A stretch of 16,413 nucleotides of DNA from Cylindrobasidium torrendii FP15055 ss-10 (taxonomy: Eukaryota; Basidiomycota; Agaricomycetes; Agaricales; Physalacriaceae): positions 1 through 16,413 of the forward strand of contig KN880830.1 of the NCBI GenBank assembly GCA_000934385.1, written 5' to 3'. How positions within the stretch are numbered: position 1 is the stretch's first letter; the number at the start of each line of letters is the position of its first letter. Shown here in pieces: positions 1-16,413 of this stretch. The notes beneath the pieces are model-generated. The model was given only the letters and a program-made list of their open reading frames with translations, was not told where the DNA came from and searched no databases. A program made the position numbers and the translations under genes.

Positions 1-512
1 AGGAGTACGTTCAATGGCCGTCCTATGATGGCTTGAGACCGACGATTTGAGGATGGGTGGCCTGGTGGTGGAGATGGTATAGCGAGGGCAACTTGGGTCG
101 GATCGAAATGGCACGACTTACCGAACAGCCTGGAGAAGGAAATGACGGCGCCCGAGGACAGGAATGCGTCCAATGATTGTCCTTTGATGGTTTGAGATCG
201 ACGATTTGAGGATGGGCGGCCTGGTGGAGGAGATGGTATAGTGAGGGCAACTTGGGTCGGATCGAAATGGCACGACTTACCGAACAGCCTGGAGAAAGAA
301 ATGACTGCGCCCGAGCACATGAATACATCCACTGGTTGTCCTGTAATGATTTCGAACCGACGATTCGAGGATGGGTGGCCTGGTGGTGGAGTTGGAATAA
401 TGAGGGTCAGACTGGGTCGGATCGAAATGGCACGACTTACAGACCACCCTCGGGAACGAAATAAGGGCACCCGAAGACAGGAATGCATCCACTGGTTGTC
501 CTTTAATTATTT
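1..512. repeat. Tandem array, about 159-bp unit, at least three copies
   Basis: Near-identical blocks recur with starts near 1, 160, 319 and 479 (periods 159, 159 and 160). The fourth copy loses similarity near 512, and the first is cut by the left edge, so the array probably continues outside. Each unit contains GGATCGAAATGGCACGACTT and GACGATTTGAGGATGGG with few changes. The units differ by roughly 3-16% depending on the sub-region. On the minus strand every unit carries a perfect GTAAGT donor and a CCAG acceptor (see the CDS entry over the same span). It could equally be a non-coding minisatellite. Confidence 0.9.
1..512 (-). CDS. Possible gene made of tandem 99-nt exons (partial)
   Basis: On the minus strand each repeat unit can be read as a 99-nt exon followed by a short intron. 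Predicted introns are 380-440, 221-280 and 62-121 (61, 60 and 60 nt), all with GTAAGT donors and CCAG acceptors. The exons between them, 281-379 and 122-220, are exactly 99 nt, both phase 1-1, so 33-residue blocks stay in frame. Each block reads roughly HPSSNRR, a variable stretch, then DAFLSSGAVISFSRLF. The exon at 441-512 is truncated at its 5' side, with a stop just upstream and no clear acceptor; the gene would continue past the left edge. Against coding: the intron parts of two neighbouring units differ less (2 of 60) than the exon parts (about 10 of 61), so there is no sign of purifying selection on the exons. I do not recognise the protein. Confidence 0.25.
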
Positions 513-1186
513 AATGGGCGTTGTATACGCGGAGGTTCAGGTTGAATCAATTTGCGGAAAGCGACTACTTGACAAGATCATGGACTTTGTCAAGCATAGT
601 ATGAGCTTGTGAGACTTTGGCTGACCGGGACCTCAGGCAAGGACGGTGCGAGAGTAAGGCCCCACGTACCTTCCACATACTCCAAATGGCAGCAGCTTTG
701 CGTATGCTTCTGTGGCCAGATCACCCTCTTTGGCTCTTCATATGCTTGTATCCATTGTCTGGCTGTTAGCGCGCTTTGCGCACCATACATAACCCAGTCA
801 GCCTTAGCATACCCAAAGAGATGGTAACACGCACATGTCCTCAACCACTGCTCGATACAAGCCGCAAATGTACATTGCCCGAACCAGTACTCTTACTATT
901 CTGTATGAATGTGCATGCTACGATTTGAGAAGACATTAACGTAATTGTCCTGGTCGTAAATCTTCCCGTATCTTCGACCTCCTCTCGTACATTACCAAAG
1001 ACTCGGGAAAGAGGTCGGTGGTTGCATTTGACATTTTGCAGGGGAAGAAATAAGATGTTTCTGAACTCAAGAGGCGCGCAGTGCTCTAATGAGTTTTTGA
1101 ACGAGTGCACTGATTGCCCGGAACGATACGGTGTTGAGTCTACAACGCGCCTGCGAGCATTTGAGCTGATACGGTGGGGCCTGCAG
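513..1186. other. Stretch with no supported gene
   Basis: Only short open frames in several phases, none with a convincing splice pattern or recognisable motif. A minus-strand open stretch (590-844) and a plus-strand stretch near 1022-1180 have some amino-acid variety but mixed third-position composition. They may be decayed coding sequence; nothing more can be supported. Confidence 0.5.
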
Positions 1187-1370
1187 CAACGTCAACATCT
1201 ATGCTTTCCGGCCACACAGAGAGGAGGAACGCACGCCGCTCATAGAACACATCCATGTCCCAAGCACTTCTGTTGCTGAGCTCTTCGACGCAGGCTGCGC
1301 TACCGTAAATCACGATTTTGCTTGGGTGCTAGATGAGCAAGGAATGATCAACGGCAATCCAGGGCCTTAG
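1187..1370 (+). CDS. Possible terminal exon of an unidentified gene
   Basis: An open stretch begins after a possible acceptor (CCTGCAG, ending at 1186) and runs to a TAG at 1368-1370. It reads as a mixed hydrophobic/acidic peptide including AELFDAGCATVNHDF and ending MINGNPGP. The composition looks protein-like, but no upstream exon could be joined with confidence; a stop lies in the same frame just before the acceptor. Its end overlaps the predicted minus-strand stop at 1348-1350 by 23 bp, which is unusual for two real genes. It may be a fragment of a decayed gene. I do not recognise the family. Confidence 0.18.
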
Positions 1371-1816
1371 ACTTTCGACCCAGAGCGTGGGCACTAAGAC
1401 CTTAGTTGACATCAGCCGGAGAGGGATAGCGGTGAGGAATGGAGACACACCTGCCCTGAACAGTCCTTCTCGACTGTTTTCCTACAGGCCTAGTTGGCCA
1501 TTCCTGGCATCGAAGTAAATTCCATTTGAAGTCGGCCGACCCCCAACCACGGTTCACGCTCCAAATGTTGATGACACACATTCGCGCCGAGAAGAGTGGA
1601 CACTAGAGGTGCTTGTATGCGGCCGCTGGGTGTTGGTCGTCCTGCTGAATCGCGGACATTGATACTAGCCACGCCATTGCTAAGACCCGTGTTTGTCTCC
1701 TCTTCCTCTAGGTTCTCGGCTCGAGCTTTGGGCTCAGGACTGTAAGGCAACAAAGTTAGCAGGCTTAATGACATAGGGCAGAGCGCCGACCCAAGCATAG
1801 GGGTATGTGGTAGACG
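1348..1816 (-). CDS. 3' exons of the minus-strand gene split by the KDZ element
   Basis: Predicted exons in transcription order are 1791-1816, 1580-1739, 1451-1503 and 1348-1393, with a TGA stop at 1348-1350. The intron 1740-1790 has a CTAAC branch site and a TTACAG acceptor. The exon 1580-1739 encodes an acidic, hydrophilic tail (contains AENLEEEETNTGLSN); the last exons are basic (GKQSRR, GRKSKALDCR). If the intron 1504-1579 is not removed, the frame instead stops at 1490-1492. The first exon starts in phase 0 after ATCATAG, matching the phase of the last right-flank exon (15821-15934), so these look like the two halves of one gene. Function unknown. Donor GTCGGC at 1790 is weak, so details may be wrong. 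Confidence 0.4.
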
Positions 1817-1832
1817 CTATGATACGGGTAGG

Positions 1833-1840
1833 GTATGCAG
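1833..1840 (+). repeat. Left copy of putative 8-bp target-site duplication
   Basis: GTATGCAG lies directly outside the left inverted repeat. The same octamer, in the same orientation, lies directly outside the right inverted repeat at 15780-15787. As I recall, 8-bp duplications have been described for Zisupton-type elements. One extra base (C, 1841) separates this copy from the first aligned base of the inverted repeat. Confidence 0.5.
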
Positions 1841-1919
1841 CAGGCCAAGCTGTAGTTTCAGCTGAAAATCAGTTGTTGTCACCTCAGGACCCTTTACCAG
1901 ATTCAGTTGTTGTTTCAAG
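1841..1919 (+). repeat. Left terminal inverted repeat (proposed)
   Basis: Aligned without gaps to the reverse complement of 15702-15779. The inner 48 positions (1872-1919) match at about 37, in the pattern GTTGTTGTC, CC, AGG, TTTACC, GAT, GTTGTTGTT, CAAG with identical spacing. Similarity is weaker over the outer 30 bases but includes a shared GCTG.AG. A second shared block (GATGCTG, then CTGGCC) follows at 1971 after a gap of about 38 nt relative to the right end. Confidence 0.55.
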
Positions 1920-2775
1920 CAGGCAACTGGAATCCTCCTGGAATCCAAAAAATCAGGGCCGGTTCCGGCTGATGCTGCTGCTTTTGTGCACTTCTGGCCG
2001 ACGCTTAGTCATTCCCTAGGCCGTTTTTTTTATTTACGGGTCCATAATCGAGCAGAAAGCAATAATTGTATATCAATACCCCATGTGGCGCAATTTTCCG
2101 CCCATTAGCGCCTGCGGGCTAGCAGCGCGTGCGCTGCGCTCTCGAACGTTTGATATACAACGAGAGCGATATTCCTAACGTAGTCCGACCTTTAATTTTC
2201 GATTTCGAGATGCCTTCCCGCCACCCGCCCGCTCCCTCCCTCCCTAGCCGTTTCCCTCTCTGCCCCCTCTTGAATTCACAAACAATAGCGTTCAAATATA
2301 AGTTCAGAAAAGAAAATGCGCCGCGCTATCCCGCCTTTTTCTGCCGTTCCCGCCGTTCCCGCCCTTTCATGCATCGCGGGGCTCACCTCACCGGTCCAAT
2401 CACATTGGCTATATCTCAAATCACCTCCGCTGCGAAAAGAGGGAGAAAATACGGTCAGAAAACGTATTTTTCCCTGCTTTCCGATAGAAAACTCATGACT
2501 ATTGTCCTTGCCTGCTAATGCGCCGCCGTTAGCGCCGTTTTTGAGCAGGATTCATGGATTCCGCGCCCGCTATCGCGCCAGACGACACGAAAACGACTGT
2601 CGTATTGCTACTTCATTATTTACCGGTCTCTCAAGCTGCCGATGGGTCGGTAATGCGATGAACAGCATTTTTTTAGTGAGCACAAGATATTTCTTTATAC
2701 GGTCGTAACAAAGGCAGGTCAAGATATTGCTTACAAGCGTCCTTACTACAAGAATACGGCGACGAATATACGTAA
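1920..2775. other. Left subterminal region of the element, no gene seen
   Basis: About 850 bp without a supportable gene. It has alternating T-rich and pyrimidine-rich stretches, several GCGCC-containing motifs (2108-2115, 2318-2326, 2520-2528, 2531-2537), two adjacent TTCCCGCC boxes near 2347-2363 and a CCAAT...ATTGG palindrome at 2396-2408. Short open frames here are pyrimidine-driven and give low-complexity peptides. The GCGCC motifs recur in the right subterminal region and could be transposase-binding sites; that is inference only. Confidence 0.45.
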
Positions 2776-3807
2776 CTAAGCGCCAAACATATCACAATCA
2801 TTGTAAGCATAGTCCTCGTCGTCGAGATCCCAGCGAGGAAGCCGCGTACGGATCCCACCACGGACGGGGCTGGCGTCACGCAGAGGGACATCCTCGGTGT
2901 CTGCATCGACGCTGAAAAGCCGCTGGAATTTTTTCCCGTTGCATGGACGAGGCGGGGTGTCCGGGATGACCGAAGGCTTTCTGGGAGATGTCCGCATCGG
3001 CGACTGAACGAGCGATGTTGGCGAACGCATGAAGAGCAACGGTCTGGGGCTGACCGACTCCTTTTTGATGCGCGGTGTGCATGACTTCTTGCGGGGGTAT
3101 GGCGTAGCACGGTAGCGACGAGCAGGCGGACCGACTACGAGGACGGGGGTGCGTGGCTCCTGCTTGACTGGAGAGAGTGACTCCTCCTTGATTGGGGTGA
3201 CCGGGGGGCGCGACTCTTGCTTGACAGGCGGCGGAGCGGCGCCAGGGATGACGTTGACTGCAGGCTGCGGACGATGTCCTACAGGGACGGGGCGGGGGCG
3301 GGGACGTTCAGCGGCGGCAGCAGCAACGGCTGCCAAGTGGCGAAATGCGTCGATTTTGGACCTCGGGACGTAAAAGCCACGCGCGTCTTTCAGATGAAGA
3401 ATTCTCTTCATCCCCCAGTTGATAAAAGGCCAGACGTCCTTCTGTAGACGATGAATGAGTGGAAATCAACGCTAGCGATGGGAAACGCACCTTGAAGCGC
3501 TTTTTCGACAGCGCACGGCGCTCCACATCCGGCAAATCCTCAACGGGCACCCTGTTGTCCCAGCCCTCTCGACAATCTTGCTTGGCGCGTGCGTATGCCT
3601 TCTTGTTGCCTTCGAGGGCGAGGAAAATCTTGGCCCAGTGAAGGGAGAACTCGACGATTCCATCCCCAGCGGTATGCTAGCATACGTGTTGTTAAAGGCA
3701 GCAGCAACGAGATACTGGAAACTACTCACGTCTGCCGGCTTCTTTGGCGGCGCAAGCAGCATCTGCTTCAGCGGCGTCTTGTCGCGACCGGACCTGACTC
3801 TGACCAT
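2776..3807 (-). CDS. Gene A: hypothetical basic, proline-rich protein with SUMO-type motifs
   Basis: Three predicted exons: 3730-3807, 3491-3676 and 2776-3441 (introns of 53 and 49 nt, donors GTGAGT and GTGCGT, all phase 0). The protein is 309 residues. Residues 1-121 look folded: a basic start (VRVRSGRDKTPLKQMLL), a segment with FSLHWAKIFLALEG and then INWGMKRILHLKD. An alanine run (125-132) leads into a disordered proline/serine/basic tail. The tail carries four psi-K-x-E motifs, VKQE (K162), IKEE (K173), VKQE (K181) and IKKE (K214), plus several SP/TP sites, and ends in an acidic stretch rich in D, E and Y. This suggests a nuclear, possibly SUMO-modified protein, but I do not recognise the family. 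It is divergent from gene B, sharing the 3808-4466 spacer. The exon joins are clean; no defect is seen. Confidence 0.75.
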
Positions 3808-4466
3808 GTTGTGGGTGATCCAAGTGTGGTGGGATCGCAAAGGAGAACCTTTGTTCACGACAAAAATGCCTGCGCAGAAATCTTACCAATCGCTATATGC
3901 GAAGGAATCGGACGGAGGTGAAATCGAAGTCAGATGTAATACACTATTCGACGTGATTTCGGATTTTGGATGGCCATTGCGCTGTGTCGATGAAGACGGG
4001 GGATTTCCACAGTGCTCTGCCTTGACAGGCTCTGCCTCGCCTCGACAGAAAGACAAACCTATGCACTTTGTAGCGTCACCGACACATCCAATGCGACCAG
4101 CTTTGCAGTCGATACCAGCGCGCCACCCATTCGGCGGCGCAAGACGGTGACAAGATGGCCTGTCGTCCGTCATATAGCCTCATGCAGTGTCCCGGCCATC
4201 TTAAGTCGCCGCAGGACAAGAAAATGGAAATGACGACCAGTCAATGTGCACAACCACAAGCAGATGCTCACGCTGAGTAGACGCTCACGCTGTAGCCAGC
4301 TGCAATCGCCCAAGCCGGGCACGACAATGAGCGTGATGTCAGAACTAAGCGACATCCAACTTCCAAGCTCAGTTGCCGAAGATCTGGCCGCCGGATTTGA
4401 TTGCCGGACAAGCATTGTCATTCACGCGGATCCAACGATCCAACCCCACCTTCTTCTACAACCACC
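3808..4466. promoter_or_regulatory. Divergent promoter region between genes A and B
   Basis: A spacer of 659 bp separates the two start codons. The open stretches inside are short and run in competing frames with poor third-position bias, so I treat it as a shared regulatory region. No clear TATA box or repeated operator could be picked out by eye. The gene B start lies in a good context (ACCACCATGG). Confidence 0.4.
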
Positions 4467-5935
4467 ATGGCCCAGCTGAAAGCACCGCTCGCTGAATACG
4501 CCGCCTATCTTGGCGTGACCGTTGACACAACGACCATTGTCAAGAGCAATGGGAAAACCGGCACTCATGCGTTGTAGGTTTTCGATAGAAATCGCTGCCC
4601 ACCTAAACTGACCACACTAGTCTCCCCACCATCCAGTCGAGCCGCCTACGCCATCCGTTCCCCTACGCCATCTATCTCAAGACGTTTGACGATGCCAACC
4701 TGCTCTGCAACCTATGGATTGACTTCCTCGAAAAAGCAGTACCGTTCCCTCTTCTCGAAGTCGGCGGCGGAACCACCGTCGCCGCCATCGGAGGCTCGTC
4801 GCAGACCTCGCCCGTTATCGAAAAGTTTTGCGATCTAGGCTTTGACGCCAAATTCGATTGCGCCCTTCAGCACTGCAAACCAATTTTCGCGCTACCGTAC
4901 TCACAGTATCCTGGCCTTTACATTCACGAGTACGTCTCCCGCTTACCAGCGCCGCCAATGCTTACAACGTCTCCCAGGGATGCTGCTCGACTCTCAGTTC
5001 AAGGCTGTGCTGCACGCTTTCGTCCCTACAACATTGTCACCAACTCGTTTGCCACAGCGTTCGAGGCCATTCTCTGCAACGCCTGGGAGTCGAATCGTCC
5101 AAGGTCTTGGCGCAAGGAGCTGGTTTCCTACGATTTCGCATTGTCCGATGACACCTTCGGTGGCCCGCTTGCTCCGCTTCCTCCGCACCAACACCCTCTA
5201 CCGCCCCCAGGACCACTCGTGGACCCGCACACATGGGAAGAACCTTGCATTTCGTCTTCGCCATTTCCCAGCCCCGCTGCTACTCCATCACGCCAGCCAT
5301 CCCATCAGGCTGCTATTATTCGCACGCCAAGTCACACGCCAAGTTGCACGCCAGTTTCGTCGCCCAAGGGGATAGCGTGTCGTTTATTTGACACCGGCAG
5401 CGCACCCAAAACGTCACCCCGTATCTTTCCGGAAGCATCCCCTTCTCGCAACAGATTGCTCACACCTTCGCGCGCCACCAGCCCTCTGGTGGAAGTCACA
5501 TATGCCTTTCCAGCACCGCGTTCCCCTGCCCCAGCTTACCTGGCCCAGCCAGCGTCTACATTGTCCGTCCACGACGAAGCGAAATCGCCCCTCCGCCAGG
5601 CTGCCTCAGAAGGGTCCGCGCTCGCTCGTGTGCTCACGAAATCCGAGTCTGAACCACTCCCCGACGACCTATGCCGCCTGATCTCTGCATTCTTTTCTGA
5701 CCATGTCACCGAGGCCATGGACATCTTCGCCGCGGCTCGACGTTACAAGAACTTCAGCCTCGCTTGCACCAACGTAATCCCTCATCTCCCCCGCTGGATG
5801 ACTCTCCAGCAGTTCACATACTGCCTCGAATTCATCTTCGACAGCGGCGACCCCATTCCCGCCAAGTCTAGCCATAGGAAGGCGCGCGAGAGCAGTCGCA
5901 CTCTTGCTGGGACCGAGGACAAGTCGCGGGGCTAG
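4467..5935 (+). CDS. Gene B: hypothetical two-domain protein with proline-rich linker
   Basis: Exon 1 is 4467-4573; after a 47-nt intron (4574-4620) exon 2 runs to TAG at 5933-5935. Read without further introns this gives 473 residues. The N-terminal part (1 to about 185) looks folded, with RLRHPFPYAIYLKTFDDANL, LLCNLWIDFLEKA and IVTNSFATAFEAILCNAW. A proline/serine-rich linker follows, then a helical C-terminal domain (about 382-446: LPDDLCRLISAFFSDHV, MDIFAAARRYKNF, RWMTLQQFTYCLEFIF) and a basic end. Between about 4945 and 5030 the frame with best codon bias differs from the one on either side, so a further 44-nt intron (4906-4949) and two small frameshifts are possible. The copy may therefore be damaged although no stop interrupts it. 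I do not recognise the family. Confidence 0.65.
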
Positions 5936-6412
5936 ACGTGAAGTAAGGCTGGGACTTGGTCGATATGTATTTGTGATCTTGAAATGCTACAGTCATGTAT
6001 TTAGTTTTACCGTTCTGCTGTATCCGCTCGTCGATGTTGTTGTACTTCGTCTTACATACATACATCTACATGTCTTGTGGTTGTCAATATATCTTGTTCG
6101 TCGTGTCGCTTGTCCGAAGTCGGCCAAATGCACCTGTGGGCCACCTCGACTGTAAATGGCAGTTACTCGGTATCTTTCCCCGCATGATATTGTTGTTTCC
6201 GCTTTAATTACACGCTAGTGTGACCGAGATCCGTTTAAGATACATCGGCAATTGCATCACACACGAACCATCCCTTTGGGTCAAGCCAGATCCCCTTCGA
6301 TCTGAGAAAGTCCTAAGGGGACCCCCTTAGGACTTCATCGAAATCTCGAACACTCAAACAACAACAGGATTTCTGGAAAGGAAAGCTCTCATAGACATGT
6401 CGAGGTACTATT
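5936..6412. other. Convergent intergenic region between genes B and C
   Basis: A 477-bp AT-richer region between two 3' ends, with repeated T and TA runs as expected of fungal 3' untranslated sequence. It contains a perfect inverted repeat near its right end (6308-6335, listed separately). No gene is supported. Confidence 0.5.
6308..6335. repeat. Perfect 13-bp inverted repeat (hairpin)
   Basis: AAGTCCTAAGGGG at 6308-6320 and its exact complement at 6323-6335 are separated by two bases. Weaker pairing continues outside (TTCGATCTGAG on the left, CATCGAAATCTCGAA on the right). It lies about 80 bp beyond the stop codon of gene C in the B/C convergent gap. Fungal genes do not use hairpin terminators, so its role is unclear; it could be a small nested element or an RNA hairpin. 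Confidence 0.75.
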
Positions 6413-7073
6413 CTAGGATCCTAAGAGTAGCACTTGTTTGAGAGTGCCGTTGTCCCAGGCATCGAGCAGAGTGCGTAAGTTACTAGCCAGCGCATGCGTA
6501 CTCTCTGCCATATGCGTCGCATCACGTCCCCAAATGTCCTCCTTCGCGAACAGTATACAAAATGTATCATATGTGATATCCATAGCACGACAATATGGCT
6601 GGAGCTCGCGCAGGACGCTCTGGAGGAATAAAATGTGATCCTGGAGTATGGCGCCGCGACTACGAAGCAGAACTTGGGACGTGTTTGAAAACCAGTCGGC
6701 CGGTGCGTCGTCGAACGCATGGATGATATGCAGGTAGAGATTCTTGATTTGTTGGAACAGAGCTGCCTGGCGTACGTCCGCAGGTAGTGGGTAAGTGAAG
6801 CAAGTATCTTGAAACATCTCGTTGACGGTGCAGTTAATGCCAAACCACGACAGTGAGCGGGCCAAGCTATCAAATGAGGGTGAGTATATGGTCGAAAGAA
6901 GTAGGGTCCACGCACAAACAACTGTTACCCGCGGCGCGCGCCCTTCTCTTTGCACATCGCGCGTCGACGTTTTTGGCCTCCCATGCTGCCTTTCGGAGTC
7001 GCGTAGCTTCTCTGCACTCTTTAGCCGTGCCGTGGTCCCTGGGCCTCCCATTCTTCTTCTTCGCGAATACCAT
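6413..7073 (-). CDS. Gene C: hypothetical small helical protein with basic N-terminus
   Basis: Two predicted exons, 6916-7073 and 6413-6866, joined by a 49-nt intron (donor GTGCGT, acceptor GATAG), give 203 residues ending at TAG 6413-6415. The first 50 residues are strongly basic (AKKKNGRPRDHG, ATRLRKAAWEAKN, CAKRRARAAG), resembling short basic, helical DNA-binding-like N-termini seen in many Agaricomycete hypothetical proteins. The rest is helical and non-basic (NEMFQDTCFTYPLP, AALFQQIKNLYLHII, ILQDHILFLQSVLRELQ). An unspliced alternative beginning at 7051 shares the 3' part but has a less natural N-terminus. Convergent with gene B, divergent from gene D. Family not recognised. Confidence 0.6.
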
Positions 7074-7797
7074 TGGCGCCAGGAATTACGCTGAGTGGGA
7101 TGTTTTGGTGTTTAGTGATGAGCGTGCAAGGCAGAGACAGACAAGACAGATCGGTAGGATTGATCGCCTGGGAGGACCTAGAAGTAATCACCTACGATGA
7201 TGCAGGGCACTGTAGAGGCTCGGAATACCACAGAAATACTCATTCAGACATCCTCTTTTATATTTGACAAAGTTTTTATGATGACCCAAATGTCCAGCTT
7301 TTGCGATGCATCCAGACAGACTGGGCCATGTAAAGGGTGAGTCCATGTCCGACGAAAACTTGCGCATAGAAGACCCCGAAAGAGCTATAAATTAAGCATA
7401 CGGAAAGCAGCCATAAATGTTTATGAAGCGTCGTATGTAGCCATAACGTGAATTGAACGCAAGTAGGAGGCTGCAGAATATTGCCAACATTTTCGAGCAA
7501 TAATCTTTGATCACGAATTGCTTGCCGGCTAGCCGATTAGGCTACCGATTGATCCAAACGCGCTTGCGTAGCTATTCTCATTAGGTCGCCCATGGTCACC
7601 AACTTTGCCAACACCTAACCCAGCACGCTACAGCTATGTTGGCATCGTGAGTGGCTCACTTCGCGGCATCAATGGTCGCGTTGTTCACATCCTGGCAGGG
7701 AAAACATAAGTCCGTCTACCGGGCCCCCAGAGTCTAGGCGCGTTCTTTTCATGTCTTCCTCTTACCACTCGCAGCCAATAATATCTTTCGTGTAGTG
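7074..7797. promoter_or_regulatory. Divergent spacer between genes C and D
   Basis: A 724-bp region between two start codons. It holds only short open frames. Around 7260-7500 it is AT-rich; 7510-7560 has a short self-complementary stretch (CCGGCTAGCCG). No promoter element can be named with confidence. Confidence 0.4.
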
Positions 7798-10512
7798 ATG
7801 GAGGACTCATCAACTTCACGTCCGCGGAGTGCGTCGTTTCATTTGCTTTCCCAACAACACGAACTTACAATTTTCACAGGGGTGGTTTTGCATTGTAACG
7901 CGCGCTCTCATAGAGAGTACAGTGTGTGTGCTCATTGTTTGTAAGGCTACCAGAAGACCGTGCGACTTCATCGCGCATTTCCTCCAGCCCATCGCGGGCA
8001 AGCTCTGTGGTGTGCGTCTTTTTGGACTTAAACATCGCACAGTTTCTAATCAACCATGCAGAGAGGATGACAGCGGCTCCATCTCGTTCGATATCAAACC
8101 ATTTCGCAAAGGCTGGGCCAAAGGAGCGCGCGCCGACTTTCTAGACGAAGCATATCATGGATTTCAGGCCGCACGGACCCGCGGCACTCACTCCGTCGCG
8201 GACTACATCACGAACACCGTCAACGAATACTGCGCACGGTTTACCTGGTGGATAGATCCCCCGCGCCTGCCCACCACCGACGAGCTGGAAAGGGAAGACG
8301 ATGACCTGCCTCCTGCTTTGGGCTCGCAGAAGGCAGCGCGGTTAAAGCGCATCACAGTTGTAAGTCAACACGCCTCGCACTCTGACATTGGCTTTACCTG
8401 CACACAGGGTATTCGAAACTACCTCGACAGGCTGGCACAGCGCGCCGCGCCCATCACCTTGATGACCCCCAAGCAAATTGAAAAAGACCCAGTCGCTTCC
8501 CTCATTGCTACCATCGGTGGTGCGAAAGTGGGACAACGTCGAGCACGCACCGGATATCAACTGTGGTCCATGAGCCACTTCAAGCATGCTGTCAAGAATG
8601 GTGTCGACAACACCGTTACCCAGGCCGGAATTGATCGCCAGAAGGATCGCATCGGGGTCGTGCAAGCCCAGACAGTGGCGGCGTACGAGGCACTACCGGC
8701 ATTCGAACGCCAGAAGTACGAGGATGAATCGCGGCGCGAGCAGGAAGAGCTCAGACAACGCAAGAAGGATAGCAAATGGATGCCACAGCAATTATCGCCC
8801 GAGGAAATTCAATTGTGCGTATCTTCTGGCTGACTCCTGGTCTTAAACTCACAACACATGCAGAGCCCTCGATAAACTCCCCCACAGCCTCATCGCCCTG
8901 TTCGACGGCCTGCGTGCTCTTACGGGGTGGAACTTCGATGTCTTCTATTCGGGACCTGACCCGCGCGCTGGCGGCCAAGTCGCCACATTATCGTGAGTGT
9001 TTGACTAGATGTATAGTCTTTCAGCTGAACTTTTTCCAGTGTTCACTCGGGTGTCGACCGTTCTCCTATTCCTCGTGACTTTCCCACTGCTGGTGGGGCA
9101 GAGGGTCTAGCGCGTCGTCGACTCGTTGAAGCAGCAATTGGGGATTTTGCATTACGCTGCTTCAGTATGTTCAGCGGCCAGTACCTGGGAAGACTAATTG
9201 ACACTGTATCGCAGGTACCGCAGACCGTCAAGCCGCCTGTCTTCCGAACGACACTCTCAACCAGACCGCCCCGCCATTCTTGGCATGGCGTCCATCGTCA
9301 TGGGAGGCCGCGTTGAAGCACACGTCCGCATCAACTGCGCTGCCCGAGTCCAAATCCACCAAGCGCAAGCAGCCTGGCGATTCTCAGTCAGGCTCTCGCA
9401 AGAAGACGTCAATAGCGGACAACAACAACAACGAACCATCTCAAACGAAGAAATCCAAGTCTCAACGCACGCAATCCACGCGCCAGACCAGACGGAAACA
9501 CGACGAAGATGTGAGCGACTCAGACATCGAGCATAGTGCTCAAGTGTCAGACGAGGCCTCGCATGACCATGTCGTGCATTCTGAGGAAACCACTCTTCAA
9601 AACCCCATTGCTCCTACATCTGGACCGACAGACACACCGTCGGGACCCACACAGTCAGCTATGCCCACACCATCTCCAGTCGACCTGGTTATGCCACCGT
9701 TCCCTGGGAGTGTCGATGCTGAAATGGCCGATGCAGAATCTTCGGGAGATACAGACATGCCAATCGATCCAGTCCTGGTAGCATTGTCGGCATTGACGCC
9801 AAACCATTCACTGGAGGAGACCGCGGCGCCAGTTAGACGATCCACACGCAAAGCCGCGGACAAAACCATGGCCAAACCTTCCCCCGCAACTGTCGAGAGC
9901 AGCATCAAGACGCGCACAACCAAGCCAAGGCTACCGCCTGCTGCGAAGGCTATCATCTTTGGCAAGGGTCCCGCCGTCACCCCAGATTACATCAAGAATG
10001 CCCAGAAGCTATTTGCCGAGCTCAACGAGGAGGCGGAATGGGACGAGTGTGTGGAGATGTACATGGAGTACGAGCGATCCCGTGGATATGCGCGCGCGAT
10101 GCTGGCTTCCGGAAGACGTCCACAGACTCTTGTGCGTTATGTGAAAGCTGCCCGCACCCTTCCCCAAGATAGGATGCTGCCCCTTCTATGGCCAGAGACC
10201 GTCAAGGAGACGGAGGAGGTATTTTGGGGCTGGTGGCGCTGGCTCCAGCCGGCCTGGCGCAGCATTGACACTGACGACGAGAACGGTGCCCCTATCTGCA
10301 GTCCCATTGCTTTGTCGACGCGTCCGCCTGTACCGTACGATGCAGACTGGTCGGGTCTTGATGCCTCTGGTGTCAATGGGCTCCTCAATGTGATGACCTT
10401 CATTTATTTCTGGGGTCGGCAGGTTAAGGTGGACAAGAAGGGACAGAGTCAGTGGCTTGAGGCCCTTGGAGAGGTTCGCTGGGTATTGGACTGTCTTTGT
10501 GGTGAACCATAG
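7798..10512 (+). CDS. Gene D: hypothetical nuclear protein, 799 residues
   Basis: Six predicted exons: 7798-7940, 8062-8359, 8408-8814, 8864-8992, 9040-9164 and 9215-10512 (TAG). The last four introns are 47-50 nt with good signals; all joins keep frame. The first exon is less certain: an open frame also runs unspliced from 7829, but CTAAT...ATGCAG before 8062 looks like an intron end. Residues about 197-265 (GYQLWSMSHFK, YEALPAFERQKYEDESRREQ) resemble the aromatic/basic helices of an HMG-box-like domain. Residues 286-320 form a compact motif (ALFDGLRALTGWNF, then GPDPRAGG). Residues about 414-470 are a K/R-rich nuclear-localisation-like stretch inside a long S/T/P-rich disordered segment. 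From about 620 a helical, tryptophan-rich domain (EVFWGWWRWLQPAW) ends the protein. A DNA-binding or transposition-accessory role is possible but not shown. Confidence 0.75.
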
Positions 10513-10838
10513 ACTCGCATGTATTCTTAATTCGTCGTTTGCTTTCTTGAGGTCATGTATTCATCTGTCGCGTCGCACTGTCCGTACTGTAGTCGTGTTT
10601 TACCTTGTTTTCTTGTAGTGCATCTTGACAATAATATTACAATGACCGTCGACTGGTGTATATTCCTTGACGGGTGCGTATCCGACCATTGACGGGTGTG
10701 TATCAGGTGCGTATCAGGTGTACATTATGCGGGCGAGAACGCTGACCTTATCTTTCGGGCATTGAATGTGCGCCGTGACCCTCAAAAATTCTTCTAGGTG
10801 TTTGTACGGTGTTTAGTTCTCTCCCTCTCTCCACCACA
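10513..10838. promoter_or_regulatory. Gene D 3' region and gene E promoter with iterated GGTG motif
   Basis: After about 140 bp of T-rich 3' sequence come five copies of a ten-base motif close to GGTGYGTATC: starts at 10655, 10673, 10695, 10706 and 10717. The last three are spaced by exactly 11 bp, and two longer copies share TTGACGGGTG (10667 and 10689). The cluster lies about 110-185 bp upstream of the gene E start, a natural place for binding sites on one face of the helix. A CT-rich stretch just before the ATG (10819-10836) is typical of fungal promoters. Confidence 0.5.
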
Positions 10839-11442
10839 ATGTCCATCGATATTTCATCCCTTCGTTTCGCCTCCCAGGTCTCTCTCCATTCTCTCGACGG
10901 CCTGTTCACTACGTCTGCGGATTCGGCTTCTGCTGAATATCAGCAAAAGTATGTCCTTCGCTGATGTTGGTATGTACTAGTTGCTGACGGTAGCACAGCA
11001 GCGACAGCGGCATCCACATGCGCGCCTCAGAGGACACCATAGTCGCCGAGAGTGTGGGCTCGACACTGCCAGAAGACAAAGCCGTGTTGTTCCCACCCGC
11101 GATCCTGCCATCGCCGACTAACATTCAGTACGAGTCGGCTCCTGCGCAGCCAATTCCTTGTCCTGCTCTACCTGCCAGCGTCGACGCTTTGAAAATGTGG
11201 CAGGAAACCAACGCTCGTTTACAAAAACAGGCAGATGCCTTCCAACGGAAGGAACGACGCCGCTATGGTATGCCGCCATGCGATTCAATTCCCACGGCTG
11301 ACATCTTCACATAGGCTTGGACTTGGACAAACATGAATACTCGCGCTGGTCGCCCGATAGCACCAACGACAAGGACGTGTGCGTGTGCAGACTTATCCTG
11401 AACGCCGTTCATTCTGATACAACAGCAGACCTTGCTGTTTGA
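10839..11442 (+). CDS. Gene E: hypothetical small protein, 168 residues
   Basis: Three predicted exons, 10839-10948, 10999-11267 and 11315-11442, with introns of 50 and 47 nt (both donors GTATG). The start is in a good context (CCACAATGTCC). The N-terminal third is serine-rich and may form a short helix (LRFASQVSLHSLDGL). The middle is low-complexity and proline-rich. Residues about 100-130 form a charged helix (KMWQETNARLQKQADAFQ, followed by RKERRRYG), possibly a coiled coil. The 3' end is uncertain: a further intron (GTGTGCG...ACAACAG) could replace the last codons before the TGA at 11440-11442. It lies between gene D and the transposase in the same direction. No family recognised. Confidence 0.6.
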
Positions 11443-11709
11443 CCGGTGTTGTTCGATTATTTACCATGGGATTTTGTCGTCTGCGAGATGCGCTGGCTGG
11501 GCGTTGATTTCCATTGTATACAGAAGAAAAGTTTTTATCGTCTGGACAGTATGTCCTGGATATACGTCTGTAATTTCTTGAGCCGTGCATTAATTGTATA
11601 ATTCTTGTTTCTATGTGGCCGCGGCGCAGACTACACAAGTCGATAGGGCAGATCAGAATTGCAGGCCTGAGTCACGTGGTACCAACCTTCCTGCCTCAAT
11701 ACGTTGATC

Positions 11710-14700
11710 ATGTCGCGCCCTCGTGTTCCCCTTATCCCTGGCAAGCGCGCCATAGCCTTGCGCGTCTCACGCAACCACGAACACACCACCGACGAAACAC
11801 AGCTGCACACACGCTCGTTTAATCTGTCCGATGACCGCAAACGGTTGAAAATCAACACAAGAGGATCGTGTGCGCTTGCTGGAAACAGCCGAAGCACAGA
11901 CTGGCAGAGCACATTCGACGAGGCCATTGCAGAGGTTTATGTCGGGCCGCCTACACGCAAGCGATATGTTAATTCGGTGCGTGATTGTAGCCTTCATCTG
12001 TGTAAACTAACCTCTCTACCAGGACAACAATAACCGTACGTGGGTTGAAGACGGTCGCCCGCAGGAGTACTTGTATGAGTTTATGCGCTTGAAAGGTCGA
12101 CGAGGTCTGGCAGGACCCTGCCGCTTCTGCCGTTCTGGTGGCGAAGCAGGCTATCGGTGTATGGATTGCTTCAACGCAGGACTGAAATGTCGTGCGTGCT
12201 TCCTGAATGACCATGCGAGACACCCCTTCCATCGCTTTGAGGTACGCGACGGCCAAATTGGTCTGTCCTTTCATACTGACAGGCATTTAGTTCTGGAACG
12301 GCGACTGCTTCGAGCGTGGGCATGGACCCACGGTTGGCTTAACCGTGGCTGTCGGTCACAATGATGGTTCACGCTGTCCTGTAGGGAAGTTGGCAAAGAA
12401 ATTCACAATCTTGGATACTGGCGGAATATTCGTGTACGACATAACCTTTTGCAACTGCGAGAAGCGCACCCCAAAAAGAATCCAGCTCCTGCGAGCTGAA
12501 CTCTTTCCGGCAACTGCACGCAACCCACGGACCGCGGCAACTTTTCGTCTCATCGACGAGCACGAGCATCTGGCAGCGCACGGAAAAATTTCCCCGTACG
12601 AACACTATAGCTCGCTAGAGCGTATGTCTGATGCTTGGCGTCTTGCTATTCCTAAGGTTGGCATCTATACAAAGCCAACTATACTTGACTCACTGGAACC
12701 CAGTCTCGCCTCAAGTCGTGGACACGCATAATACGACAGAGCGGATTCATTACCATGTTGTGCCGAGGCGGACGTGGGTGCATACAGGAGGGTGTGATAA
12801 GTACAAAGGGTGGGCAGTTGGCTATCGCGTGCCCGGCTTGTCCGCGCGAGGGAGTAAACATACCAGATAACTGGCAGACCCTCCCACCCGCAGAACGGTA
12901 CGTCTCGATGGCGCGACGTCCGTTTATGCTAATTATCCACAGTTGGCGCTACAGGCTGATGCTGATGCTTGACGCAAACTTCCGCCTGAGTAACCTGCGC
13001 CGGAATTCCACAGAGGATAAGGGACTCCATACGGGATTGGCCTATTTCGTCGAGGACGATGCATATTTGGCCCATATTGCGAAATACCCAAAGCAGGAAG
13101 ACGTACGGCCTTCATCTACTTAGCAAGAACCCTTGATTAATGTGTTCATAGCTGAGCAGCTGTAGTGGCTTCAAGGCCATGTCTACGGCTGAGACTAAGG
13201 ATGCAACGGGTTTACGGGCCACTGGCGTCGCCATGTGTGCCTGTATCCAGCATGAAATGATACGACCGCGAGGAGTGGTCGATTTACAGCGCGGGGAAAG
13301 GTTCGTTTTAGGTGCACTCAACCTTGCCTGTCTCATTGACGAACTAGACAATGCAACATGGATTATGCAGCACTGTCGGCGGCGCAAGACAGCAAGTTGG
13401 ATCGCCTCTATAGCTACGACATCGCTTGTCAGTGGTTTCTCAACCTCTACAAGCGTATCGTCGAAATGCCGGAGCACTTGCGCCCGGGAGCGGGATGTAA
13501 TCTAGCATACGCCGTTCCCAAGTGTCACTGCAAAGGCCACAAAATTGACTGCCAATGCTTCCATTCCTTACTCGTCCAGCTGGGTGTGGGCACCGAGGAT
13601 GCAGAGGGAATCGAACGCATCTGGTCATTGATTAACCACTCTGCTGGAGCAACCCGTGAACAGTTGTATGGTCATCGCCACGACACGCTGGACCGTCGAA
13701 TGGCAACCCACAACTGGGAAAAGGTGACAAGCCTCGGTGAGTTTGCTGAATCGCGCCGTCGCAATGTACTGATTTTGTCTAGGCAAATATCTTCATGGCC
13801 GTCTGGAGACGGAGGAGCAGAAACTGGCGCAGCTCGAGGAGGTGCACGACGAGTTTACCGCGCTGCTCGAACCCTCGGGCAAGATACCCGTGTGGGAGGC
13901 TGAGGTGAAGGCGTGGGAGCTTGAGAAGTTAGTGAACGGTGGTCGTCTCAAGGACGGATCTCAAAAAAGTCCGTACTGGCGTGAGCGTCGTTGTCAGTCC
14001 TCTCTTTCTTTGTTTGTCCCGCGTCACTCACTTTTTGGTAGACCTAAAGCACAGCGAGCTAATGCTCAGGTTGGCCGAGCAGGAGCGGACATCCGGAGTC
14101 CAGCCGATACATGACACGAGTGCAACGGCATGTGTGGACATGGGGCTGAGGATTGAGCAGAAGCAGTGCGTATTCGAGTACACCTCAATGTTTTCCATTC
14201 GGCTGATTCCTGTGCAGGCGGGATATTGTACAACTCCTCACATCGACCAACAAAGACGCACCACATGTCGTCAAGGAGATCCAAGCGAAGCGGATGACGC
14301 TTCAGCGAGACCTCATGCAATTCCGGGCGGTCCAGCAGGTCTATATGCCATGCATCGCGGCTGTCCTTGCTGTCAGCGCAGGCGAACGTTCGGGCGACAT
14401 TGAGACCGAGGTTTTATTTCTGCCTTCGTCTCTGTCGTCGGAAAAGCAGGCCAATGGGTGTGCAACTGGGTTGGTGGCAAAGGAGGATGCCATGCGAGAA
14501 GCCCAGTGTTTCGCGGCGTTGGAGGAAATCCGGTCGATTCAGCGGGGCGCACGACAGCTGGCTACTTTCAGGAAGTCGAACATCCGTGGGACTCTGGCAT
14601 CTGGCCGGTCATTCGATGCCCAAAAACGGATGGCTGCGTTGACAAAAAAGGCGGTGGAGACGTATGGCGCCGCACGGCATGCCCTCCTGCGTATCCGAGG

Positions 14701-15391
14701 TCATGGCATGTGGGAGAAGGTGCTGCAGGTACTCGACGAGAAGAGGGATGTGAGAGGCATCGCCAGCGACATCTTCTCCACAGACCTGTCCGCCGATTTA
14801 GTATCTCACACTGACGAACTCGCGACATCTGCACATACGACTCTGAAGCGCAAACGCACGAAGCACGGCATGAAGACTGCGGACACCGTATTCTCAACGT
14901 CTGACTATTTCGTGTCATGGATCTGGAGGGTTTCGGGTGCGTTTAACGAGGCAGACGACGACGAGATGGACGGAGTCTTGCATATTGAATGGCTGAAGAG
15001 TCGTGCACGGGTGGAGCGTTCGCGCGAGCAAGTGCAGCTCCTGAAGGACGGTAGGGAGCGCACACTTCTCTCGTTCGAATACGAATCGAAGGAATGGCTG
15101 GGACGTGCATCTGGATGGGACGGCATCACCCAAGAGCTTGCGGAAGGCATTTCCGGATATTGTCACGCTCAAGCCGCTGGCAGGCGACGACTGGCCGCAT
15201 CGTTCTCGACACTGTGGACAACAAAGGCCTTCCATGGACATCCGCGTGTGGCAGACCGAATTGACCTCGAAGAGGACATTGTGTCGGATTCCGAGGATGA
15301 GGGGGATTGTTTTGATGAGGACATTGTACATACTTTAGCTGACCTTCCACCACCCAGACCCGGCATGCGAGACCAGCCGCCGACTATGTAG
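11710..15391 (+). CDS. KDZ (Kyakuja-Dileera-Zisupton) transposase with CxC2 cysteine cluster
   Basis: Ten predicted exons: 11710-11976, 12023-12241, 12291-12656, 12704-12897, 12943-13102, 13152-13300, 13348-13736, 13783-13992, 14042-14165 and 14218-15391. All nine introns are 45-52 nt and keep frame, giving 1083 residues without an internal stop. Residues 122-162 are the CxC2-type cluster: three CxxC pairs (C122/C125, C135/C138, C145/C148) and a trailing H-rich segment, a likely zinc-binding DNA-recognition domain. The RNase H-fold core follows with the three acidic residues in family contexts: D359 (LMLDANFRLSN), D476 (YSYDIACQWF) and E541 (GIERIWSLIN), plus a Cys/His insert (PKCHCKGHKIDCQC) between the last two. 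The C-terminal third is helical and charged, with an acidic end. Known role of the family: cut-and-paste DNA transposition in the nucleus. The intact frame suggests a recently or still functional enzyme. The eighth donor (13993) is uncertain by a few bases. Confidence 0.93.
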
Positions 15392-15701
15392 TATACTGTG
15401 TACTTGTTTATTGAGGTATCTTTATGTTCTTGCTTATCTGTAATTTTTTTTGCCGCCGCCACACACATAGGACCAAATGCGGTAGGTCTTCCAGTTGCCG
15501 AGCTCATTTTTTCGGCGGCGCCTGCATTTTCGCTGCGCCGGCAAATATTTTAATTCTTGCCCGAGTATTAATCAGCATCAATGATGCAAGTCCCCAATGC
15601 AGCTGCCTGGCCCGAGCCCTGTGCTCTGGACCGTGTGTACTTTGGATAAATAAGGCAGGTGGCCAGCCGCTGCAGCAACAACAGCATCCTGGTATTTCGA
15701 A
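15392..15701. other. Transposase 3' region and right subterminal region
   Basis: The transposase stop is followed by a T-rich 3' sequence with an eight-base T run near 15445. Then comes a GC-rich block at 15513-15540 (GCGCCTGC at 15518, GCTGCGCCGG at 15532) whose motifs also occur in the left subterminal region; CGGCGGCGC at 15513-15521 is the inverse complement of 2520-2528. A short palindrome, GCATCAATGATGC, lies at 15574-15586. No gene is seen. Confidence 0.4.
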
Positions 15702-15779
15702 CTTGCAACAACAACAGTATCAGGTAAATCAACCTCTGGGGACAACAACAGAATTTGGGAAAAGCCTGCAGCCAGGGTT
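15702..15779 (-). repeat. Right terminal inverted repeat (proposed)
   Basis: The reverse complement aligns without gaps to 1841-1919 (see the left copy). CAA/CAG iterations on the plus strand make part of it low-complexity, but the spaced non-repeat matches (CC, AGG, TTTACC, GAT, CAAG) are not explained by that. Read as protein, both copies give LLSPxxxLPDxVVVxS pointing inward, so a shared coding origin is an alternative. Confidence 0.55.
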
Positions 15780-15787
15780 GTATGCAG
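15780..15787 (+). repeat. Right copy of putative 8-bp target-site duplication
   Basis: GTATGCAG, identical to 1833-1840 and in the same orientation, directly abuts the right inverted repeat. The two copies flank 13,939 bp. Confidence 0.5.
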
Positions 15788-15820: not shown

Positions 15821-16413
15821 TATCCTTTGATCACAGATTTCGGAAGTCTTCAAATGAGGAAAGGTGTCCACCATACATGGCCCAAATCCAACGCGGCGTG
15901 CTTCTCCGCGTCCATCGACCGCGTCTGGCGCGCGCTACAAAATCGTTAGAAGTGGATGGCATGCTAGTAGGCGACGCACAAGATGGTTTCTTCTCATCTA
16001 CACGTCCCAAGTAGGTCTCCTTGGGCCTATACTCGTCGTCCGTGAAGCCAGGCAGAAGCTTGTCCCAATCGCGCCTGTCGGATACGATGTGCAACGCGCG
16101 CTTGTTTCTTTGGTGCAGTACACGATGTTCATGGGAGGGCGTCTGTCGAAACTTGAGTTTCCGGACTCTTCATTCTGGGCGGCAGAGCTCTTGCCAACGA
16201 GATGTCATGATGGTCGAATATATACCAAACGAGATGTGATCAGCCCGCGTTTGTAGCCAAACAAACGCTTGAAACTGACTTCGAAGCTACACAACTTGCC
16301 TGACGGCTCACGCTCTTTGCTCACGGCTTCAAGCTTCAGCTTCATTCCCCGGCAGAATGGCGTCCATGGACTCACAAAAATCATTTTTGGGTCAGACCTA
16401 GGCCTTGTGGGAC
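15821..16413 (-). CDS. 5' portion of the minus-strand gene split by the KDZ element (partial)
   Basis: Predicted exons in transcription order are 16226-16413 (open to the window edge), 16122-16174, 16002-16074 and 15821-15934. The introns are 51, 47 and 67 nt with GTATAT, GTACTG and GTAGAT donors; the last has a CTAAC branch site and TTTTGTAG acceptor. The first exon reads MIFVSPWTPFCRGMKLKLEA followed by CSFEVSFKRLFGYKRG, clearly protein-like; an ATG at 16382-16384 could be the start or an internal Met. The third exon has DWDKLLPGFTDDEYRPKETY. The exon 15821-15934 ends in phase 0 before GTAGGT, and the next in-phase exon is found 14 kb away at 1791-1816. Together about 236 residues lie in the window. 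The function is unknown. With a 14-kb intron, correct splicing is doubtful, so the gene may be disabled. Confidence 0.45.

What the first reader, a model, noticed from the sequence alone, without database searches (positions are those of the whole stretch)
1833..15787. Full-length 13.9-kb composite KDZ element delimited by inverted repeats and an 8-bp direct repeat
Seen: a 78-79 bp ungapped inverted repeat (about 37 of 48 inner positions identical) joins 1841-1919 to 15702-15779, and GTATGCAG occurs in direct orientation immediately outside both. Established: KDZ elements are DDE transposons, and 8-bp duplications are, as I recall, described for Zisupton. Inference: the six genes between form one mobile unit. 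The extent and gene content of such composite elements are rarely defined at base level.
Basis: partly seen in the sequence, partly recalled or inferred. Interest (0 to 1): 0.75.

Follow-up and report, generated by a model that had tools for sequence, protein, structure and literature searches.

The report
Mushroom jumping gene carrying six genes
A 13.9-kb stretch of a mushroom genome is a complete cut-and-paste transposon of a known superfamily, whose exact ends are fixed by sister copies and empty sites, and which carries five extra genes that look kept by selection, one of them with repeated possible SUMO-attachment sites.

Summary
Real and well defined. The window is a contig of Cylindrobasidium torrendii. 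Window 1841-15780 (13,940 bp) is a complete KDZ DNA transposon. Three further full-length relatives in the same genome (13,754, 13,549 and 13,662 bp) have corresponding ends; the closest loses all similarity exactly at 1841 and 15780.

Three empty paralogous sites agree, two of them unambiguously. Seven-bp duplications plus CA..TG ends match Kyakuja as described by Kojima 2025, not Zisupton (8 bp). Unlike the two Laccaria Kyakuja families there, this element has ~80-bp imperfect inverted repeats, and I found no TET/JBP gene.

It carries six genes: a CxC2+KDZ transposase (F) and five accessory genes (A-E), with dN/dS estimates of 0.05-0.32. C, D and F recur in the same order in six elements. 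Protein A carries SUMO-consensus/phospho motifs (psi-K-x-E-x-x-S/T-P) in all five copies found, but the A-like frame of the most diverged element has none. Accessory functions are inferred, not shown. New variant of a known kind.

The parts
1834..1840 (.). left copy of the 7-bp target-site duplication TATGCAG
   Evidence: sequence; length fixed by sister elements and empty sites
1841..15780 (+). complete KDZ DNA transposon, 13,940 bp, termini CAGGCC...GGGTTG
   Evidence: same ends in C342 by BLAST and in C435, and corresponding ends in C433; empty paralogous site C235
1841..1920 (+). left terminal inverted repeat, with GTTGTTG at element positions 32 and 66
   Evidence: 54 of 80 match to the right end; motif positions
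2776..3807 (-). gene A, 309 aa, exons 3807-3730, 3676-3491, 3441-2776; conserved N-terminal part and a Ser/Pro-rich tail
   Evidence: model; annotated protein P0007, 309 aa, 100% identical over its whole length; dN/dS 0.16-0.17 against C342
3046..3192 (-). stretch of gene A with three psi-K-x-E-x-x-S/T-P motifs (residues 172-220)
   Evidence: motif scans and shuffles
4467..5935 (+). gene B, ~460-474 aa, no Pfam family; exons 4467-4573 and 4621-5935, probably one further intron inside the second
   Evidence: model; copies in C342 and C435; dN/dS 0.18-0.19
6434..7090 (-). gene C core: N-terminal GRPR (AT-hook-like) basic stretch plus a helical domain; outer exons uncertain
   Evidence: alignment of 4 copies; model of the domain; found in 6 elements
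7923..10512 (+). gene D, annotated as a 793-aa protein (P0001): conserved N- and C-terminal domains, weak HMG-box hint, disordered middle; first exon(s) uncertain
   Evidence: found in 6 elements; dN/dS 0.11-0.14
10798..11507 (+). gene E, ~180-200 aa; start uncertain; seen only in the window and C342 among the four elements read
   Evidence: dN/dS 0.24-0.32
11710..15391 (+). gene F, KDZ transposase, about 1,100 aa, ~10 exons
   Evidence: model; six-frame KDZ match over all 217 profile positions
12291..12728 (+). open frame with the CxC2 cysteine cluster of F
   Evidence: PF18803 E 2.6e-31
12950..13714 (+). KDZ transposase domain of F; candidate D, D, E residues at codons 12971, 13418 and 13613 (motifs recalled, kept in 4 of 4 elements)
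   Evidence: PF18758; motif check
15701..15780 (-). right terminal inverted repeat, CAACAAC mirrored at position 32 from the end
15781..15787 (.). right copy of the 7-bp target-site duplication TATGCAG
   Evidence: sequence

Best explanation
A complete, probably autonomous cut-and-paste DNA transposon of the KDZ superfamily, Kyakuja-like by its 7-bp target duplications and CA..TG ends. Inferred working: transposase F binds and pairs the ~80-bp terminal repeats, cuts the element out with its DDE-type domain and inserts it at a 7-bp staggered cut that becomes the duplication. Proteins A-E travel as helpers. C (GRPR/AT-hook-like plus helical domain) and D (weak HMG hint) would be DNA-binding or architectural partners, because they accompany F in six elements. 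A would be a SUMO/phosphorylation-regulated scaffold that acts on transposition or on silencing. Shown: ends, duplications, empty sites, gene content, constraint on the genes. Inferred: activity and every helper function.
For: Identical BLAST ends in C342. 7-bp duplications in 4 of 4 full-length elements: window TATGCAG, C342 ATACGGC, C435 GAGCTGG, C433 CTTCAAG. Empty paralogous sites for 3 of the 4: C235, C188 and C414, where left and right flank matches overlap by exactly 7 bases. Exact end patterns occur only at these ends in the 29.3-Mb assembly: 3 places each, 0 in the reversed control of each. CxC2 and KDZ domains. Gene order C(-) D(+) F(+) in 6 contigs; A and B in 3 of them. dN/dS against C342: A 0.16, B 0.18, C 0.23, D 0.11, E 0.24, F 0.05 on well-aligned codons; 0.17, 0.19, 0.32, 0.14, 0.32, 0.06 on all aligned codons.
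Against: No transposition, expression or strain polymorphism was observed. The copies are far apart (dS about 0.8-1.7), so there is no sign of a recent burst; the empty sites are paralogues 67-86% identical, not alleles. Gene models were chosen partly by conservation, which can favour low dN/dS, and dN/dS was not tested formally against 1. E is absent from C435 and C433 at profile E 0.05, so it is not essential to the family. The C433 terminal repeats are weak (39 of 80) and lack GTTGTTG.
Confidence: 0.88

Rival explanations
1. A Zisupton-type element with 8-bp duplications ending at 15779.
For: GTATGCAG is an exact 8-bp repeat here, and C433 also happens to match at an eighth base: 2 of 4. 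Cryptococcus KDZ1 makes 8-bp duplications, and KDZ2/KDZ3 4-8 bp (PMC12810828, passages seen), so length alone is a soft marker.
Against: In C342 and C435 the eighth base differs, and their empty sites do not have the element's last G there; the flank matches overlap by exactly 7. All four elements end in G, which makes an eighth match a one-in-four accident.
Confidence: 0.04
2. The mobile unit is only the transposase with its ends; genes A-E are bystander host genes trapped between repeats by chance.
For: None of A-E has a Pfam family at its cut-off, and 15 of 21 KDZ contigs gave no match to C or D (single-exon queries).
Against: Same genes, order and strand in independent insertions with different flanks: A, B, C, D, F in C400, C342 and C435, and C, D, F in three more contigs. 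No match to D, C, B or A was seen away from KDZ contigs in the 29.3-Mb assembly.
Confidence: 0.02
3. The element is a domesticated or immobile relic whose genes now serve the host.
For: Strong constraint on all genes despite large divergence between copies; no near-identical copies in this assembly.
Against: Four separate insertions, two in retroelement gag sequence, with undecayed 7-bp duplications; conserved terminal repeats serve no host purpose. Constraint is also what repeated transposition selects for.
Confidence: 0.08

Closest known systems
Kyakuja DNA transposons of mushrooms (Kyakuja-1_LB, Kyakuja-2_LB of Laccaria; Kojima 2025, PMC12730594)
   Same: KDZ transposase, Agaricomycete host, 7-bp target duplications, CA..TG termini
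   Different: The paper says those two families have no terminal inverted repeats and encode a TET/JBP dioxygenase; this one has ~80-bp imperfect repeats and no TET/JBP match. I could not see whether their other genes resemble A-E.
Zisupton / Dileera elements
   Same: Same KDZ transposase superfamily
   Different: 8-bp duplications are reported for Zisupton and for the Dileera element Zisupton-1_PGr; here 7 bp
KDZ1-KDZ3 of Cryptococcus neoformans (PMC12810828, passages seen)
   Same: ~9-11 kb KDZ elements with TIRs; mobility shown experimentally
   Different: CxC1 rather than CxC2, TIRs of 139-241 bp, 8-bp or 4-8-bp duplications
KDZ elements of Pleurotus ostreatus (PMC7641404, passages seen)
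   Same: 36 KDZ-type transposons in one mushroom genome, intact ones preceded by a CxC2 cluster
   Different: No ends, duplications or accessory genes given in the passages seen
Giant KDZ elements of Ectocarpus and Chlamydomonas (PMC12477816, passages seen)
   Same: Very large KDZ elements with accessory genes; the paper says fungal KDZ elements frequently carry them
   Different: Up to ~30 kb; cargo not compared here

Membership tests
KDZ superfamily | KDZ transposase domain (PF18758) | tested here: met
   126.3 bits over profile positions 1-217 in the window, cut-off 26.6
KDZ superfamily | Cysteine cluster (CxC) ahead of the KDZ domain | tested here: met
   CxC2, E 2.6e-31
KDZ superfamily | DDE-type catalytic residues | tested here: inconclusive
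   Three candidate motifs (recalled) kept in 4 of 4 transposase models; no activity test
Kyakuja | 7-bp target-site duplication | tested here: met
   4 of 4 elements; overlap of exactly 7 at two empty sites
Kyakuja | CA..TG termini | tested here: met
   4 of 4 elements
Kyakuja | No terminal inverted repeats (as reported for two Laccaria families; not clearly defining) | tested here: not met
   54 of 80 positions match in the window; hence I call it Kyakuja-like, not a proven Kyakuja
Kyakuja | Transposase falls in the Kyakuja branch of the KDZ tree | not tested
   No named Kyakuja/Zisupton/Dileera sequences were in hand; the tree holds only this genome
TET/JBP-bearing (TET+) transposons | TET/JBP dioxygenase gene | tested here: not met
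   No Tet/JBP family for models of A-E at E <= 1, nor for D at E <= 10; a very diverged one could be missed
Zisupton | 8-bp target-site duplication | tested here: not met
Autonomous DNA transposon | Transposition | not testable with these tools
   Needs culture or strain comparison

The most novel reading that the evidence does not exclude
The element encodes its own SUMO-regulated chromatin factor. Protein A presents an array of phosphorylation-dependent SUMO sites and, with the AT-hook-like C and the HMG-like D, coats or remodels the element's DNA to time transposition or to blunt silencing. It would thus do with protein modification what TET/JBP genes are thought to do in other Kyakuja elements.
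Probability: 0.2. Interest if true: 0.75.

Novelty: new variant of a known kind. Interest (0 to 1): 0.45.

Why it matters
It gives a base-exact definition of a multi-gene KDZ element: four full-length members, four target duplications and three empty sites in one genome. That turns a transposase with neighbours into a testable unit: the ends are known, so a minimal donor can be built and each accessory gene left out in turn. It also suggests that Kyakuja-like elements need not carry TET/JBP, and points to a possible alternative, a SUMO-motif protein, for how large fungal transposons cope with their host.

Tried and rejected
The 8-bp reading was rejected on the C342 and C435 ends and their empty sites. 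Reading C433 as a partial copy was my first view (note); searching for its left flank's 7-mer found the right end, so it is complete. The first KDZ tree was wrong: six minus-strand loci had not been turned round. It was redone: the six C-D-F elements need 2 changes on the tree against 5.4 on average in shuffles (0 of 500 as low), but a single clade appears in only 10% of bootstraps, so one origin is compatible, not shown.

A and B in C433: A-like and B-like frames sit in the right order and strand, but profile scores are weak (best A frame E 0.32; B frames E 0.034 for one and 0.0015 for a domain of the other, out of 138 frames). Suggestive only.

Homologues outside the species: searches with D and A scored only the ~8,000 candidates sharing most words. 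They gave C. torrendii proteins plus one Mycena chlorophos protein for D (E 2.4e-6), so absence elsewhere is not shown. Solved structures: none for D or A at E <= 1, one chance-level hit for C (E 0.45). Folds: the C domain model is fair (pLDDT 78.8) but none of 294 listed PDB matches reached E 0.001, the best being syntaxin Habc at 0.35; the D model is poor (pLDDT 54.4). HMG box for D: 1 of 4 members at E 0.019 and P0003 at E 0.26, both weak.

Papers: six answered searches listed none whose title or abstract start describes this element; I did not open the six C. torrendii papers listed. Iyer 2014, which named KDZ, is not held and is known to me only from recall and citing papers.
Full report
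The window is contig C400 (16,413 bp, whole) of a 29.3-Mb, 494-contig assembly. Annotated proteins matching its genes name the organism as Cylindrobasidium torrendii FP15055 ss-10, a mushroom-forming fungus.

Ends. Searching the assembly with the window found a second element in C342. BLAST shows similarity over most of the interval (66-77% by block), starting exactly at 1841/4147 and stopping exactly at 15780/17900; the flanks do not match. C435 carries a third element (355-13903) and C433, on its minus strand, a fourth (13,662 bp). Lengths are 13,940, 13,754, 13,549 and 13,662 bp. All four begin CAGGCC and end TTG. Exact patterns for the two ends hit three places each in the assembly, namely these ends in C400, C342 and C435, and none in the reversed-pattern control. 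Terminal repeats match at 54, 40 and 48 of 80 ungapped positions in C400, C342 and C435 and 39 of 80 in C433, against a maximum of 36 in 20,000 random pairs. GTTGTTG lies at position 32 from both ends in three elements, and not in C433.

Duplications. TATGCAG, ATACGGC, GAGCTGG and CTTCAAG: 7 bp in four of four. In two (C400, C433) an eighth base also agrees because the flank happens to have G, the element's last base; in C342 and C435 it does not. Uninterrupted paralogues of three target sites are present. For C342 (site in C188) and C435 (site in C414) the left and right flank matches overlap by exactly seven bases. For the window, the two flanks joined with one copy of the duplication align across the junction to C235, 67% identical overall. 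I did not look for an empty site for C433.

Targets. C435 lies in a retroelement gag gene: its paralogue in C414 has Retrotrans_gag, zf-CCHC and RVP_2. C433 is flanked by a zinc-knuckle-like sequence (E 0.0055, under the cut-off). The flanks of the other two have paralogues elsewhere but no Pfam family among the frames tried.

Genes. Comparing translated frames of the four contigs and a splice-aware scoring script gives six genes: A(-), B(+), C(-), D(+), E(+), F(+). The A model equals an annotated 309-aa protein, and D agrees with an annotated 793-aa one. F has CxC2 and KDZ domains and keeps three candidate catalytic motifs in four of four elements (motifs recalled). Outer exons of C and the starts of D and E are uncertain, and the F model probably reads through one small intron near 12898-12943.

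Conservation. C, D and KDZ occur in the same order and strands on six contigs (C400, C342, C435, C433, C62, C193), A and B on three, and E in two of the four elements read. Twenty-one contigs carry KDZ matches; the other fifteen gave no C or D match with these single-exon queries. dN/dS between C400 and C342 is 0.05-0.24 on well-aligned codons and 0.06-0.32 on all aligned codons, with dS about 0.8-1.7. So the accessory genes look functional, though model choice favours conserved codons.

Accessory proteins. C starts with a basic stretch in which GRPR is invariant in four of four copies; Pfam AT_hook scores just under its cut-off in the C435 copy. The rest is predicted to be a helical bundle. 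D has conserved N- and C-terminal domains, a weak HMG-box hint and one relative in Mycena. A's tail holds psi-K-x-E-x-x-S/T-P, the phosphorylation-dependent SUMO motif (name and definition recalled). The counts are 6, 3, 3, 3 and 1 in five annotated copies, the last partial, where shuffled sequences of the three full models give about 0.003. Among 529 distinct open frames of at least 100 aa in the DNA held, in all six frames, gene A copies were the only ones with any. Against this: the repeats are partly tandem, so the motifs are not independent; the A-like frame of C433 has none; and a motif is not proof of SUMO attachment.

Literature. Kojima 2025 (abstract, part 1 of 3 of the results, legends and search passages seen) gives Kyakuja 7-bp duplications, CA..TG ends, no TIRs and a TET/JBP gene, and Zisupton 8 bp. 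Cryptococcus KDZ2/KDZ3 make 4-8-bp duplications, so duplication length is a soft marker and I call the element Kyakuja-like. That KDZ elements are large and often carry accessory genes in fungi is already stated. The kind is therefore known. What is new here is the exact anatomy of this family, its lack of a detectable TET/JBP gene, the conserved C-D-F core and the SUMO-motif protein.

Noticed in passing
window 1-512: About three tandem copies of a ~159-bp repeat (79-91% alike) in the left flank of the element.
   Followed up: no
window 16226-16411 and G000 C427:1-181: The window's right end matches the first 181 bases of contig C427 at 97% in the same orientation, so the two contigs may adjoin or share a repeat.
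   Followed up: no
G000 C342:1-479 and 21558-22036: The contig carrying the sister element ends in 479-bp inverted repeats, 99.4% identical: a larger enclosing repeat or an assembly fold-back.
   Followed up: no
G000, 21 contigs listed: At least 21 KDZ loci falling into several well separated groups in one 29-Mb mushroom genome; many contigs are only 14-17 kb, as if the assembly breaks at these elements.
   Followed up: partly
proteins P0003, P0004, P0009, P0010 (source contigs 2.8-5.7 kb): Further, apparently partial, copies of the D and A genes on small contigs that my searches of G000 did not list.
   Followed up: partly
window 12011-12361: A frame of the transposase matches the UBR-box zinc finger at E 1.9e-4, under its cut-off, just ahead of the CxC2 match.
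   Followed up: no
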